Positions 59,654 to 62,902 of a stretch of DNA of 62,902 nucleotides are shown in pieces. Source of the stretch: a virus; IMG/VR virus record IMGVR_UViG_3300034190_001790, positions 1-62,902 of that record; one strand, given 5' to 3'. The notes under the pieces were generated by a model. That model saw only the letters and a program-made list of their open reading frames with translations, searched no databases and was not told the DNA's origin. Every line of letters begins with the position of its first letter. The first letter of the stretch is position 1. The position numbers were made by a program, and so were the translations under genes.

Positions 59654-60082
59654 GACTTTTTTTTGTAAAGATAATAAAAATATATTACACATTTAGAGGT
59701 TGAGGATAATACTACACTACACGGCAAACTCGCAAAATTTTAAAACGCTTTTTTTTACTAGGGGGGGTACTAGATTTGGCTGACGCACTCGGATTTTTTT
59801 GGCTTTTTGTTTTCATCTGGCTGCGTCCAGTGTCGTACTGGCGGCGTCCAGCATCGCCCACGCTCCACGCTCCGAATCGCTGCGGATTCAGGTGGATTCT
59901 CCCCTCCATTACCCCACATTCCGCTAGATATGAGAGCATAAGAAACAATGATCATCGTTTTTAAGGACAAAGAACTGCGTCTTTATACCCCTCCGAACTG
60001 CACAAATAGTAAACAAAACGCAGTGAAACACGCCGCTGTAAGTGATTGATACTCAGCATATTAAAAAATAGTTGTGTATTTA
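59654..60082. other. Intergenic control region with GC-rich island
   Basis: No convincing gene. Contents: an 8-nt G/T-rich step with seven G at 59,761-59,767; a GC-rich island from about 59,815 to 59,935, much richer than flanking DNA; two 14-bp near-identical direct repeats CTGGCxGCGTCCAG (59,817-59,830 and 59,838-59,851); hairpins CCAGT/ACTGG and GAATC/GATTC; and a near-palindrome around ATGATCAT at 59,948. A 33-codon frame (59,948-60,049, MIIVFKDKELRLY...) and overlapping longer frames exist but lack support. As the divergent point of both transcription blocks it may hold an origin or a structured RNA. Confidence 0.5.
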
Positions 60083-60115
60083 TTTGTTTTATAATAATTT
60101 ATTTATATATATTTG
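60083..60115 (+). promoter_or_regulatory. Strong Bacteroidota-type early promoter
   Basis: TTTG at 60,083-60,086, then 21 nt, then TATATTTG at 60,108-60,115: a near-perfect match to the Bacteroidota consensus TTTG-N19-21-TAnnTTTG. Transcription would begin near 60,121, giving a leader of about 25 nt to the ATG at 60,146. It should drive the early plus-strand operon using host sigma factor. Confidence 0.8.
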
Positions 60116-60145
60116 CACATAAATCAAACAAAAATTAAACAAATT

Positions 60146-60325
60146 ATGACTAGAGAAATCACTACCGAATGGACGTTAAACGAGTTAACAACACTAAGAA
60201 TGATTATCGCAGATAGAATTAGAGAAATGAGAGACAATAATATTGACTACGATACTCCTGAAATGAGAGGACTACAAACCAAGATAACCTTGATGCACGA
60301 AGATATGGTTTTTGATAACATCTAA
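60146..60325 (+). CDS. Small early protein, 59 aa
   Basis: MTREITTEWTLNELTTLRMIIADRIREMRDNNIDYDTPEMRGLQTKITLMHEDMVFDNI. Start at 60,146 is the ATG after the AAACAAATT leader. A predicted helical hairpin, acidic. First gene after the early promoter, so probably made within minutes of infection. Function unknown. Confidence 0.65.
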   Translation: MTREITTEWTLNELTTLRMIIADRIREMRDNNIDYDTPEMRGLQTKITLMHEDMVFDNI

Positions 60326-60332
60326 CCTTATC

Positions 60333-60392
60333 CTACTCCTAGTGGCTCATAGTTAATCGCTATGGGCTTTTCTAGGTAGAGGAATAATCCTC
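60333..60392 (+). ncRNA. Structured intergenic RNA candidate R1
   Basis: Nested helices: CCTAG (60,338-60,342) with CTAGG (60,372-60,376), enclosing GCTCATAG (60,345-60,352) with CTATGGGC (60,360-60,367) around loop TTAATCG, then a hairpin GAGG-AATAAT-CCTC (60,379-60,392). The same fold with different stem bases is repeated at 60,711-60,771. The CTA before the CT bulge also pairs with TAG after CTAGG. Located between early genes, in the same orientation. Unknown class. Confidence 0.65.
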
Positions 60393-60415
60393 GACTAATT
60401 AAACAAACAAACATT

Positions 60416-60703
60416 ATGAATATAACAAAAGTTGATATCCTCACTAGAGTAGACCAAAAATTAGGTACAGAATTACTAGATAAGTTTTACTCAGTAAACA
60501 TGAGTTCAGGAATAGAATGCAGAATACAAGGAAAATTCTCTCCTGATTTAGTATTAGAATTGAATGAAAAACTAGGTATAGACCCATACAATGATAACCC
60601 ATGGGAAGTTGACGAGGGTGGCTTTGTTAATCTATCATTCGTTCTTATATCTGCTATATCAGGATGTAATGACAAGGTTAATCTAGAGATTACTCTTGCA
60701 TAA
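60416..60703 (+). CDS. Small early protein, 95 aa
   Basis: MNITKVDILTRVDQKLGTELLDKFYSVNMSSGIECRIQGKFSPDLVLELNEKLG... ATG after AAACAAACAAACATT leader. Acidic alpha/beta protein, unrecognised. Flanked on both sides by the paired structured RNAs. Confidence 0.6.
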   Translation: MNITKVDILTRVDQKLGTELLDKFYSVNMSSGIECRIQGKFSPDLVLELNEKLGIDPYNDNPWEVDEGGFVNLSFVLISAISGCNDKVNLEITLA

Positions 60704-60710
60704 ACCTAGC

Positions 60711-60771
60711 ATACTCCTAGTGCCTCAATGCTCATCGCATTGGGGTTTTCTAGGTAGAAGACAATAGTGTC
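60711..60771 (+). ncRNA. Structured intergenic RNA candidate R2
   Basis: CCTAG (60,716-60,720) with CTAGG (60,750-60,754) enclosing CCTCAATG (60,723-60,730) with CATTGGGG (60,738-60,745) around CTCATCG, then hairpin GACA-ATAG-TGTC (60,760-60,771). Compared with R1, at least four of eight inner pairs differ while pairing is kept, the loop keeps ATCG, and flanks TACTCCTAGTG and TTTTCTAGGTAGA are identical. That is compensatory change within a conserved frame, so a real RNA. Confidence 0.7.
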
Positions 60772-60791
60772 ATAATTAAACAAACAAACAA

Positions 60792-61082
60792 ATGAGTACA
60801 TATAAAGTTAGAGATACACAATTCGGTAAAGACTTTGATAAGCCGATGAACATCAACGGCAGAGATGCCAACAAAGGATGGTACAATCTTGTACTATCTA
60901 TTGCCGAATTAAAGATGTATATCAGAGGATTAAAACCACATAGAAACTACACTCTCAAAGGTGTGAAAGCATACTTTGGATTAGATATGTTTAAGTACAA
61001 CAAGCATGAGTTGTTAAACTGCCTAGAATCGTTCAAGAGACAGCTTGAGGATTATAATGGCATGGACACTCAAAGCGAATAG
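60792..61082 (+). CDS. Small early protein, 96 aa
   Basis: Alpha/beta protein with MSTYKVRDTQFGKDFDKPMNINGRDANKGWYNLVLSIAELKMYIRGLKPHRNYTLKGVKAYFGLDMFKYNKHELLNCLESFK. Not recognised. ATG after AAACAAACAAACAA leader. The hammerhead candidate starts at its stop codon, so ribozyme cleavage would leave a short 3' end on this message. Confidence 0.6.
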   Translation: MSTYKVRDTQFGKDFDKPMNINGRDANKGWYNLVLSIAELKMYIRGLKPHRNYTLKGVKAYFGLDMFKYNKHELLNCLESFKRQLEDYNGMDTQSE

Positions 61083-61135
61083 ATACTCTGATGAGGACTC
61101 AATGTCCGAAACGAGCAGCAATGCTCGTCAGTATC
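61082..61135 (+). ncRNA. Hammerhead ribozyme, type I
   Basis: All core parts are present in order: stem I GATACT (61,082-61,087) with AGTATC (61,130-61,135), six pairs; CTGATGA (61,088-61,094); stem II GGAC (61,095-61,098), loop TCAAT, GTCC (61,104-61,107); GAAA (61,108-61,111); stem III CGAGC (61,112-61,116), loop AGCAAT, GCTCG (61,123-61,127); and the GUC cleavage site (61,127-61,129). Self-cleavage would occur after C61,129. Stem I is the open one, so type I. It would cut the early mRNA between the 96-aa gene and the 77-aa gene, leaving a 32-nt leader on the latter. No obvious stem I internal loop for the tertiary contact is seen, so activity is not proven. Confidence 0.9.
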
Positions 61136-61161
61136 ATAAGATACCAATTAAAACAAACAAA

Positions 61162-61395
61162 ATGAAAAAATCAAATTATGCATCAGTATTATATACTTGC
61201 TACGAGTTAAGTAAGAACAATGTTCTTGGAGTAACTTATGAAGAATCTAAGTGTCCTGAATCATTAGACAGAAGTACACCTGAATCACACAGCATTGAGA
61301 TACTTAAGCTAACCTTAAACAATGATGATGTGACAGAAAAGTTAGAGGGAATATGGGAGGAGATTATAGAACACATTGCTAACGAAAACAATTAG
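61162..61395 (+). CDS. Small early protein, 77 aa
   Basis: MKKSNYASVLYTCYELSKNNVLGVTYEESKCPESLDRSTPESHSIEILKLTLNNDDVTEKLEGIWEEIIEHIANENN. The ATG at 61,162 follows the AAACAAACAAA leader; an in-frame extension upstream would read through the hammerhead and is rejected. Acidic, helical. Followed by 4 nt to the next gene. Unknown function. Confidence 0.6.
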   Translation: MKKSNYASVLYTCYELSKNNVLGVTYEESKCPESLDRSTPESHSIEILKLTLNNDDVTEKLEGIWEEIIEHIANENN

Positions 61396-61399
61396 AATC

Positions 61400-61876
61400 A
61401 TGAGAAAAAAATATATAGTTATCGATACATGGAACGGAGATGGATATTCTTCAGAAAATGGAGTAGATACAAAACAATTCGCATACAAAAAATCAGCATT
61501 CAAATGGGCTTATAAAAGAGCATTGAGCAATGCTGATGGAGATGCAAAATATGTAACAAGATACTCTGATGAGTATGCACAAATAGACAAGGGAGCAGAG
61601 GGAGACGGATATTTTTTTGATAGTTATGACGATAATTGTGGTAGCTATCAAGTATGGGAGTTAAAAGATGCATATGCGTTTGTGATTCTATGTAATGTAA
61701 ATGATTGTGCAATGCTCACAAAGGAACAATTTGAAGAGCAAACAAAATCGTTAGATGATGAATACGGAGAGGATTTAGAAGAGAATTCACATACAGAAGA
61801 GAATGGAGATAAATTTTATAATTCTCTTGTTGATGACTACGATTATCAATTTAGACTAATTAGTAACTTAAAATAA
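61400..61876 (+). CDS. Early acidic protein, 158 aa
   Basis: MRKKYIVIDTWNGDGYSSENGVDTKQFAYKKSAFKWAYKRALSNADGDAKYVTRYSDEYAQIDKGAEGDGYFFDSYDDNCGSYQVWEL... Start at 61,400. Very acidic with many Y, D, G. No family recognised. Possibly a DNA-mimic or host-targeting protein, judged only by charge. Confidence 0.6.
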   Translation: MRKKYIVIDTWNGDGYSSENGVDTKQFAYKKSAFKWAYKRALSNADGDAKYVTRYSDEYAQIDKGAEGDGYFFDSYDDNCGSYQVWELKDAYAFVILCNVNDCAMLTKEQFEEQTKSLDDEYGEDLEENSHTEENGDKFYNSLVDDYDYQFRLISNLK

Positions 61877-61881
61877 ATAAA

Positions 61882-62094
61882 ATGGCATACAATGAATTCG
61901 ATGAATTAGAAAAAAATATTCAGCATTGGTACTACACATATCAAACCATACACAAAAAGATCTCGAGTAGTGTTTTTAAATCTTGCTCTAAAGATGAGTA
62001 CAACCAGTATGAAAATGCGATTGCTAAATTAAAAGAAGTAAAGAAGAAGTACGGAACTATAGATATTACAGATATAAAAGATTTACATCGTTAA
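61882..62094 (+). CDS. Small helical early protein, 70 aa
   Basis: MAYNEFDELEKNIQHWYYTYQTIHKKISSSVFKSCSKDEYNQYENAIAKLKEVKKKYGTIDITDIKDLHR. Two predicted helices, no family recognised. Starts 5 nt after the previous gene and is followed by structured RNA R3. Confidence 0.6.
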   Translation: MAYNEFDELEKNIQHWYYTYQTIHKKISSSVFKSCSKDEYNQYENAIAKLKEVKKKYGTIDITDIKDLHR

Positions 62095-62112
62095 TTTGTG
62101 TTTGTTTGTTCT

Positions 62113-62149
62113 GCGAGATGCCTCACTATGAAAGTAGTGGGGATTTCGT
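62113..62149 (+). ncRNA. Structured intergenic RNA candidate R3
   Basis: GCGAGAT (62,113-62,119) with ATTTCGT (62,143-62,149), including two G-U pairs, encloses CCTCACTA (62,121-62,128) with TAGTGGGG (62,135-62,142) around TGAAAG. The inner helix has the same xCTC...GGGx edges with a U-G pair in third place as R1 and R2. The outer stem differs, and no third hairpin is evident. It lies between two early genes. Confidence 0.55.
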
Positions 62150-62183
62150 GGTACAAGACAAATATTAATTAAAATTAAATAAA

Positions 62184-62387
62184 ATGAAAGCAAATCAATT
62201 ATTAAAATTTCTGCAAGATGTAGAACAACAAGTAAATTCTTATGGAAGAACTTTGGAAGATGTTGAAGTAAACTTTAGGAGAAGTGATGATTCTGACATT
62301 GAACAAACAGATTTCGTAGGGGTGGATTTATTTGATGAAGAATCAAATAAAATAGTAGAGAGTATAGTAATAATGGGTAAATATTAA
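62184..62387 (+). CDS. Small early protein, 67 aa
   Basis: MKANQLLKFLQDVEQQVNSYGRTLEDVEVNFRRSDDSDIEQTDFVGVDLFDEESNKIVESIVIMGKY. Starts after AAATTAAATAAA. Acidic small alpha/beta fold, unrecognised. Ends 10 nt before the last gene. Confidence 0.6.
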   Translation: MKANQLLKFLQDVEQQVNSYGRTLEDVEVNFRRSDDSDIEQTDFVGVDLFDEESNKIVESIVIMGKY

Positions 62388-62397
62388 ATTAAATAAA

Positions 62398-62902
62398 ATG
62401 GGATACAATACAGATTGGAACGGACAATTAAAAACTAATAGAGCATTCACTACACAAGAATTAATAGAATGGGAAGTAATAGTTGAAGAGAGACATGATG
62501 ATGAATTTAAATACGGAGACGAAAGAAGAGAGTTTCCATCAATATGGTGTGGATTTGAGATTAAAAACATTACTGATGATTCAGGAACTTATGGAGTATT
62601 TAGATGGATGGGTCATGAGAAGACATATCAGGGCAAAGAATGGACAATATTCTTTTTGCAAAAATGTATGGAATGGAGCCATAATGAAGAAATATATGCA
62701 GAGGGTGTTTTGGAATGGAGAGGAGATGAAGAGGATGATATGGGGGCTCTTGTAATTGAAAAAGCAAGTGACTTAGATGACGAGGGAGCCATGATGATGA
62801 TGCATATAGAAAAGGTGGAATTTTCCTACAAAAGAGAGAAGACTGCATATATATATGATGCAAAAAAAAGAGGATATAAAGTTCTTAAATCAAATGTGCG
62901 TT
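62398..62902 (+). CDS. Early protein cut by window end, at least 168 aa
   Basis: Begins MGYNTDWNGQLKTNRAFTTQELIEWEVIVEE and is open to the last base. Acidic, with several W residues and a basic end (YIYDAKKRGYKVLKSNVR). If the window end joins its start, the next codon is TGA, ending the protein at 168 aa. The MGYNTDWNG opening resembles small phage-encoded proteins of unknown role. Starts after the A/T-rich leader AAATTAAATAAA. Confidence 0.7.
   Translation, partial: MGYNTDWNGQLKTNRAFTTQELIEWEVIVEERHDDEFKYGDERREFPSIWCGFEIKNITDDSGTYGVFRWMGHEKTYQGKEWTIFFLQKCMEWSHNEEIYAEGVLEWRGDEEDDMGALVIEKASDLDDEGAMMMMHIEKVEFSYKREKTAYIYDAKKRGYKVLKSNVR

What the first reader, a model, noticed from the sequence alone, without database searches (positions are those of the whole stretch)
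61082..61135. Hammerhead ribozyme between early phage genes
The whole catalytic core (CTGATGA, GAAA, GUC site) and three perfectly paired stems are seen, with stem I open. It starts at the stop codon of one early gene and ends 26 nt before the next. A self-cleaving RNA here would split the early polycistronic message and leave a 5'-OH leader on the downstream gene. Ribozymes near phage genes are known in bacteria, but their role in phage gene expression is largely unknown.
Basis: partly seen in the sequence, partly recalled or inferred. Interest (0 to 1): 0.92.

Follow-up and report, generated by a model that had tools for sequence, protein, structure and literature searches.

The report
Phage hammerhead ribozyme at gene junction
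This phage carries a real, evolutionarily conserved self-cutting RNA (a type I hammerhead ribozyme) between two small genes, and it belongs to a large, almost virus-only group of such ribozymes that probably cut phage messages into single-gene pieces.

Summary
The upstream stop codon is TAG 61080-61082 and the next ATG is at 61162. A pattern fixing only the core and loop letters finds at least 119 virus stretches (scan truncated). Of 98 distinct hits with flanks, 94 form all three stems, against 0 of 1941 shuffles. Fourteen of 16 base pairs show double changes. Among 85,000 bacterial and archaeal genomes the narrower pattern hits twice: once by chance, once in a phage contig. These ribozymes share a strict anatomy: 6-bp stem I, 4-bp stem II, stop codon at stem I, ATG about 27 nt after the cut. 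Loop II type is coupled to the bases flanking stem I. Cultured Flavobacterium (Elemovirus) and Pelagibacter phages carry them. At one orthologous junction a hammerhead replaces a long hairpin. Best reading: it cuts a polycistronic phage message into separate mRNAs. Perreault et al. (2011) already proposed this for prophage hammerheads, so this is a new member of a known kind, with a sharp, testable anatomy. Cleavage was not tested.

The parts
60792..61082 (+). Upstream ORF (96 aa, unknown function); its TAG stop (61080-61082) shares G61082 with stem I
   Evidence: ortholog 85% identical in L001/L123; no Pfam or PHROGs match
61082..61135 (+). Type I hammerhead ribozyme (whole element)
   Evidence: sequence, fold, covariance model R1 56.6 bits E 1e-15, homologs
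61082..61087 (+). Stem I 5' strand GATACT (pairs with 61130-61135)
   Evidence: stem I exactly 6 bp in 204 of 211 relatives
61088..61094 (+). Catalytic core CUGAUGA
   Evidence: invariant except N7 across 36 aligned relatives
61095..61107 (+). Stem II GGAC/GUCC with loop UCAAU (UNNNU class)
   Evidence: loop class coupled to A's flanking stem I
61108..61111 (+). Core GAAA (last A pairs with U61128)
61112..61127 (+). Stem III CGAGCA-GCAA-TGCTCG
   Evidence: CTACC-GAAA-GGTAG in L002/L003 and CCGGCA-TA-TGCCGG in L004
61128..61130 (+). Cleavage site: U16.1 61128, C17 61129, cut 61129|61130
   Evidence: position inferred from the established hammerhead mechanism; not tested
61131..61144 (+). Mini-hairpin GTATC-ATAA-GATAC that can form only once stem I is released; would sit at the 5' end of the downstream product
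   Evidence: fold -3.9 kcal/mol; same in L001 and L003, absent from most other members
61162..61395 (+). Downstream ORF (77 aa, unknown function) with leader AATTAAAACAAACAAA; start 32 nt after the cut
   Evidence: ortholog in L123
60336..60392 (+). Long hairpin (CCTAG/CTAGG outer stem, UUUU 3' bulge) plus mini-hairpin GAGGA-ATAA-TCCTC at another junction of the operon; candidate functional counterpart
   Evidence: z -4.87
60714..60771 (+). Second long hairpin plus mini-hairpin GACA-ATAG-TGTC
   Evidence: z -4.33
62112..62151 (+). Third long hairpin (GCGAGAT...ATTTCGTGG)
   Evidence: z -7.28; in L123 the same hairpin directly precedes the gene that a hammerhead precedes in L003

Best explanation
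A constitutive cis-acting type I hammerhead that cuts the phage polycistronic transcript once per molecule at the gene junction. The upstream mRNA keeps the whole ribozyme as its 3' end (stems II and III, 2',3'-cyclic phosphate). The downstream mRNA starts with a 5'-OH and a short leader of about 30 nt with its own ribosome-binding region. In this phage and its two near relatives the leader can refold into a small 5' hairpin using the freed stem I strand, which would oppose religation and cap the message. The net effect is to uncouple the fate of neighbouring small-gene messages without a host RNase, as RNase III does for T7 early mRNA. Shown: the structure, covariation, junction position and taxonomic distribution. 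Inferred: catalysis, in vivo cleavage and the effect on mRNA stability.
For: Complete core and stems and fold. 94 of 98 pattern hits have all stems against 0 of 1941 shuffled. All 16 pairs hold in 36 sequences, 14 with double changes, covariation score 0.865 against 0.175 shuffled. In Elemovirus, stem II is GACT/AGTC in elemoA/E and GGTT/AACC in elemoB/C, with near-identical flanks. Loop II UNNNU always has A on both sides of stem I (125/125) and loop GUAA never does (0/13), a coupling neither pattern nor finder selected for, as expected of the loop II-stem I contact that fast hammerheads need. Position: the upstream stop lies within -20..+9 of stem I in 87% (random 12%), and an ATG lies within 60 nt in 81% (random 24%), median 27 nt. 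Seven or more copies in each of two genomes with a T7-type RNA polymerase, retained at four orthologous junctions whose proteins are 45-75% identical. Virus-restricted. Precedent: Perreault 2011 (PMC3088659) saw polycistronic prophage RNAs cut in vitro, one arrangement cut in E. coli, and a mapped 5' end within 3 nt of a halovirus hammerhead site.
Against: No cleavage data here. Rfam does not recognise the window element. The mini-hairpin is found in few members, so 5' capping is not general. Stem II is broken in Elemovirus D and F, and several relatives of the window phage have no hammerhead, so it is dispensable. A ribosome ending at the overlapping stop codon should hinder folding of stem I. 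A 5'-OH leader might lower or raise expression; the direction is not known.
Confidence: 0.72

Rival explanations
1. A translation-gated switch: ribosomes reaching the stop codon embedded in stem I keep the ribozyme unfolded, so cleavage happens only when upstream translation stops. It then works as regulated decay or attenuation rather than constitutive processing.
For: Stops sit at fixed offsets in the element: +7 (UGA of the CUGAUGA core) 33 times, -2 30 times, +3 27 times, -3 17 times.
Against: Offsets follow from the sequence itself (conserved A before stem I, G first, UGA in the core), so overlap may only reflect compact genomes. No alternative fold that is conserved across members was found.
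Confidence: 0.13
2. A selfish or hitch-hiking cassette: the hammerhead travels with small accessory genes between phages and has no benefit for the phage.
For: Patchy distribution among related phages; the same element plus flank at a different junction in L003; a gene flanked by two hammerheads in L153; broken stem II in Elemovirus D and F.
Against: Retained with structure at four orthologous junctions between two phages with 45-75% identical proteins; fixed spacing to stop and start codons.
Confidence: 0.1
3. Cleavage mainly sets the 3' end of the upstream message (a terminator or 3'-protection substitute); the downstream effect is incidental.
For: Type I architecture leaves the whole folded ribozyme on the upstream RNA; the scan finds no intrinsic terminator on the + strand in 59900-62902.
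Against: The downstream ATG spacing is narrow (10th-75th percentile 19-31 nt), which suggests the downstream end is constrained too.
Confidence: 0.12
4. Chance or a dead relic: hammerhead-like sequence without activity.
For: Rfam misses it; no biochemical test.
Against: Covariation, loop-flank coupling and zero hits in controls. Nothing in the core or stems of the window copy departs from consensus.
Confidence: 0.03

Closest known systems
Hammerhead ribozyme type I (Rfam RF00163)
   Same: Invariant core, three stems, open stem I, NUH cleavage triplet (GUC here, GUA in some relatives); close relatives in L088/L059 exceed the Rfam cut-off at 36.2 bits
   Different: The window element gives no RF00163 match at E<=1. 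This group has exactly 6-bp stem I without internal loop, 4-bp stem II and UNNNU or GUAA loop II coupled to stem I flanks
Prophage and phage hammerheads of Perreault et al. 2011 (PMC3088659), including halovirus HF1/HF2 HHphage
   Same: Copies flank single genes in phage DNA, proposed to cut polycistronic phage RNA; HHphage lies 13 nt upstream of the start codon of a helicase gene in the early section of the genome
   Different: Those were described mostly in prophages near integrase genes or with a variant core in archaeal viruses. Here the copies are mainly in uncultured phage contigs, phages with T7-type RNA polymerase, Elemovirus and Pelagivirus, with a uniform stop-ribozyme-leader-ATG layout
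RNase III processing sites of phage T7 early mRNA
   Same: Junction elements that cut an early polycistron into separate mRNAs (own knowledge); the long hairpins next to this hammerhead have a comparable stem / asymmetric bulge / stem form
   Different: The hammerhead needs no protein and leaves 5'-OH and cyclic-phosphate ends; whether the hairpins are RNase III sites was not tested
Other bacterial and phage self-cleaving ribozymes (twister, pistol, hatchet, twister-sister)
   Same: Also enriched near phage genes and near each other (PMC10085705)
   Different: Different folds; none found in the window by Rfam

Membership tests
Hammerhead ribozyme, type I | Core C3 U4 G5 A6 N7 G8 A9, G12 A13 A14, A15.1-U16.1, H17 | tested here: met
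   All present at 61088-61094, 61108-61111, 61128-61129
Hammerhead ribozyme, type I | Three helices around the core, stems II and III closed, stem I open | tested here: met
   Fold; 6, 4 and 6 bp perfect pairs plus A-U closing stem III
Hammerhead ribozyme, type I | Stems supported by covariation in homologs | tested here: met
   14 of 16 pairs with double changes, 100% of cells paired; sequences were chosen by a finder that needs pairing, but the unbiased pattern test gives 94 of 98
Hammerhead ribozyme, type I | Loop II-stem I tertiary contact of fast natural hammerheads | tested here: inconclusive
   Strict coupling of loop II type with bases flanking stem I supports a contact; no structure or kinetics, and sequences are related
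Hammerhead ribozyme, type I | Score above Rfam RF00163 cut-off (a recognition threshold, not a property that defines the class) | tested here: not met
   No match at gathering score or E<=10, nor E<=1 with RF00163 alone. Elements of the same layout in L088 and L059 pass it
Hammerhead ribozyme, type I | Mg2+-dependent self-cleavage at the NUH site | not testable with these tools
   Needs in vitro transcription
Phage-gene-flanking hammerheads (Perreault 2011) | Lies between phage genes on the coding strand, often in several copies per phage | tested here: met
   Window: one copy between two + strand ORFs; relatives with up to 7-8 copies
T7-type RNase III site (for the neighbouring hairpins) | Cut by RNase III at the asymmetric internal loop | not testable with these tools
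   Only shape is known

The most novel reading that the evidence does not exclude
These are a virus-specific hammerhead subclass that serves as a modular, protein-free message-splitting device. It is interchangeable at the same gene junctions with long RNase III-like hairpins, is built into the upstream stop codon, and in this phage group releases a strand that refolds into a 5' protective hairpin on the next gene's message.
Probability: 0.33. Interest if true: 0.8.

Novelty: new member of a known kind. Interest (0 to 1): 0.62.

Why it matters
The role of prokaryotic hammerheads has been called an open question (PMC6155905). This group has so regular an anatomy, and so clear a virus bias, that the role becomes testable. 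Cultured Flavobacterium phages of one genus carry intact (elemoA, B, C, E) and naturally stem-broken (elemoD, F) copies on the same host, and several Pelagibacter phages carry it too. It also shows that Rfam's type I model misses nearly all members of a common phage ribozyme group, so phage annotation pipelines overlook them.

Tried and rejected
Chance match: rejected by reversed, scrambled-core and shuffled controls. Rfam as arbiter: rejected because RF00163 finds 2 of several dozen in 12 loci. Whole-family trait of the window's phage lineage: rejected, since MW202828 (portal 68% identical), Panino, Calle_3, phi46:3 and Gundel_1 have none. General dependence on a T7-type RNA polymerase: rejected, only 4 of 20 hammerhead phages tested have PF00940. 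5' mini-hairpin as a general feature: rejected, 12 of 212 products and few distinct cases. Streptomyces phage BLAST hits (e.g. Diane): no hammerhead core there. Ortholog search with the upstream protein gave only L001/L123. blastn with the window element found nothing meaningful in named phages. Other long hairpins as members of a widespread family: a strict pattern gave only 4 contigs, of which L003 and L149 carry the element in the same junction context.

Full report
WHAT WAS CHECKED. The window is a linear IMG/VR virus record of 62,902 bp. Its portal protein is 68% identical to an uncultured podovirus (MW202828) and 47-48% to Flavobacterium Elemovirus phages and Maribacter phage Panino. It also has a terminase, a primase-like protein and a GroEL. 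At 61082-61135 the sequence reads GATACT-CTGATGA-GGAC(TCAAT)GTCC-GAAA-CGAGCA(GCAA)TGCTCG-TC|AGTATC, a complete type I hammerhead. It folds as such.

IS IT MORE THAN CHANCE. Rfam gives nothing for a hammerhead here, so homologs were sought. The exact 25-nt core gave four other virus contigs; their stems I and III differ in several cases and still pair perfectly, including GTTAA/TTAAC with a GUA site in L004. Of 98 distinct hits with enough flank, 85 meet strict stem criteria and 9 more are complete with small departures; 0 of 1941 controls with shuffled downstream sequence do. A finder run on all loci held gave 211 hammerheads, with none in reversed sequence or with seven scrambled cores. On 36 ungapped relatives all 16 pairs hold in every sequence, 14 with changes on both sides. 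This alignment was drawn from finder output, which requires pairing, so the unbiased test is. Model R1, which does not contain the window copy but contains near relatives, scores it 56.6 bits.

ANATOMY OF THE GROUP. Stem I is exactly 6 bp in 204 of 211 although only 4 were required, and stem II is 4 bp in 197. Loop II is UNNNU (mostly UCAAU) or GUAA. Every UNNNU element has A immediately before and after stem I (125/125), and none of the 13 GUAA elements does. The sequences are related, so the Fisher P value overstates independence, but the coupling was not selected for and points to a contact between loop II and the end of stem I. The window copy follows the rule (A61081, A61136).

POSITION. 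In 166 distinct cases the stop codon of the upstream ORF lies near the start of stem I in 87% (random positions 12%), at discrete offsets: inside the core (UGA of CUGAUGA), in stem I (UAA), or made from the conserved A before stem I. An ATG with an open frame follows within 60 nt in 81% (random 24%), median 27 nt after the cleavage site. So the intergenic space is essentially ribozyme plus leader.

DISTRIBUTION. In about 85,000 bacterial and archaeal genomes the narrower pattern (4-bp stem II) hits twice: one chance hit inside a coding gene and one contig that encodes a T7-type RNA polymerase and carries three hammerheads (the polymerase was recognised from its translation, not by a profile search). 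Two phage genomes carry seven or eight each, and four orthologous junctions keep a hammerhead while the adjoining proteins are 45-75% identical, including those before the RNA polymerase gene (PF00940) and a gene that reads like DNA polymerase. Cultured carriers: Pelagibacter phages HTVC019P, HTVC131P and Jormungand, and all six Elemovirus types examined. In Elemovirus, stem II is GACT/AGTC in A and E, GGTT/AACC in B and C (a compensated double change with near-identical flanks) and GACT/AACC, mispaired at two positions, in D and F (elemoB from its score and place). Five more distant relatives have none.

NEIGHBOURHOOD. Other junctions of the same operon carry long hairpins with a 3' UUUU bulge (60336-60380, 60714-60758, 62112-62151). 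The ortholog of the gene starting at 62398 (52-69% identical) is preceded by such a hairpin in L123 and by a hammerhead in L003; in the window an extra gene sits between hairpin and ortholog. After both kinds of element there is often a mini-hairpin with an AUAA or AUAG loop and then a common A-rich leader. In the hammerhead case its 5' arm is the 3' strand of stem I, so it can form only when stem I opens. This suggests equivalence of the two kinds of element but rests on three related phages.

MECHANISM. Best reading: constitutive self-cleavage splits the message, leaving the folded ribozyme on the upstream mRNA and a short 5'-OH leader on the downstream one. Cleavage itself and its consequence are inferred. 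Rivals are translation-gated cleavage, 3'-end protection of the upstream gene, and a hitch-hiking cassette.

NOVELTY. Perreault et al. 2011 (PMC3088659) found hammerheads flanking single genes in prophages, proposed processing of polycistronic phage RNA, showed cleavage in vitro and in E. coli, and noted a halovirus hammerhead 13 nt upstream of a gene in the early section of the genome with a matching mRNA 5' end. A 2017 review (PMC6155905) still lists the role of prokaryotic hammerheads as open. The element is therefore a new member of a known kind. What appears unreported in the library searched is the defined subclass, its near absence from cellular genomes, its stop-to-ATG geometry, the loop-flank coupling, and the natural intact/broken pair in cultured phages. 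Supplementary alignments of the 2011 paper could not be read, so part of this may already be in them.

Noticed in passing
window 61559-61573: The 15-nt AGATACTCTGATGAG of the hammerhead 5' half is repeated inside the next ORF but one, without a GAAA half; also present in the relative L001/L123. Chance expectation for such a repeat nearby is very low.
   Followed up: partly
window 60336-60392, 60714-60771, 62112-62151: Three long intergenic hairpins with an outer stem that varies between phages and a UUUU 3' bulge, two followed by a mini-hairpin with AUAA/AUAG loop; possible processing sites.
   Followed up: partly
window 60083-60115: TTTG-N21-TATATTTG, a Bacteroidota-type promoter-like sequence just before the small-gene operon, also seen in L123; such matches are not above chance in the whole window.
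   Followed up: partly
L153 14249-14850 (record of L081): A 137-aa gene flanked on both sides by hammerheads, just upstream of a DNA-polymerase-like gene; in the relative L152 one hammerhead precedes that gene directly: looks like gene gain or loss between ribozymes.
   Followed up: no
L126 (Pelagibacter phage Jormungand) 17816-20100: Anti-restriction ardA genes annotated about 1.3-2 kb upstream of the hammerhead; Perreault 2011 noted ardA next to hammerheads in Agrobacterium and Legionella.
   Followed up: no
L124 2948-3020 and L125 2658-2730: In Pelagibacter phages an ATG follows stem I directly and opens only a short frame (16 codons in HTVC019P), in a long non-coding stretch ahead of the MarR-like regulator and integrase.
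   Followed up: no
L003 6694-6773: A variant hammerhead with a bulged stem II (GTCTGC-TGAAAT-GCAAC) before the ortholog of the window's last gene.
   Followed up: partly
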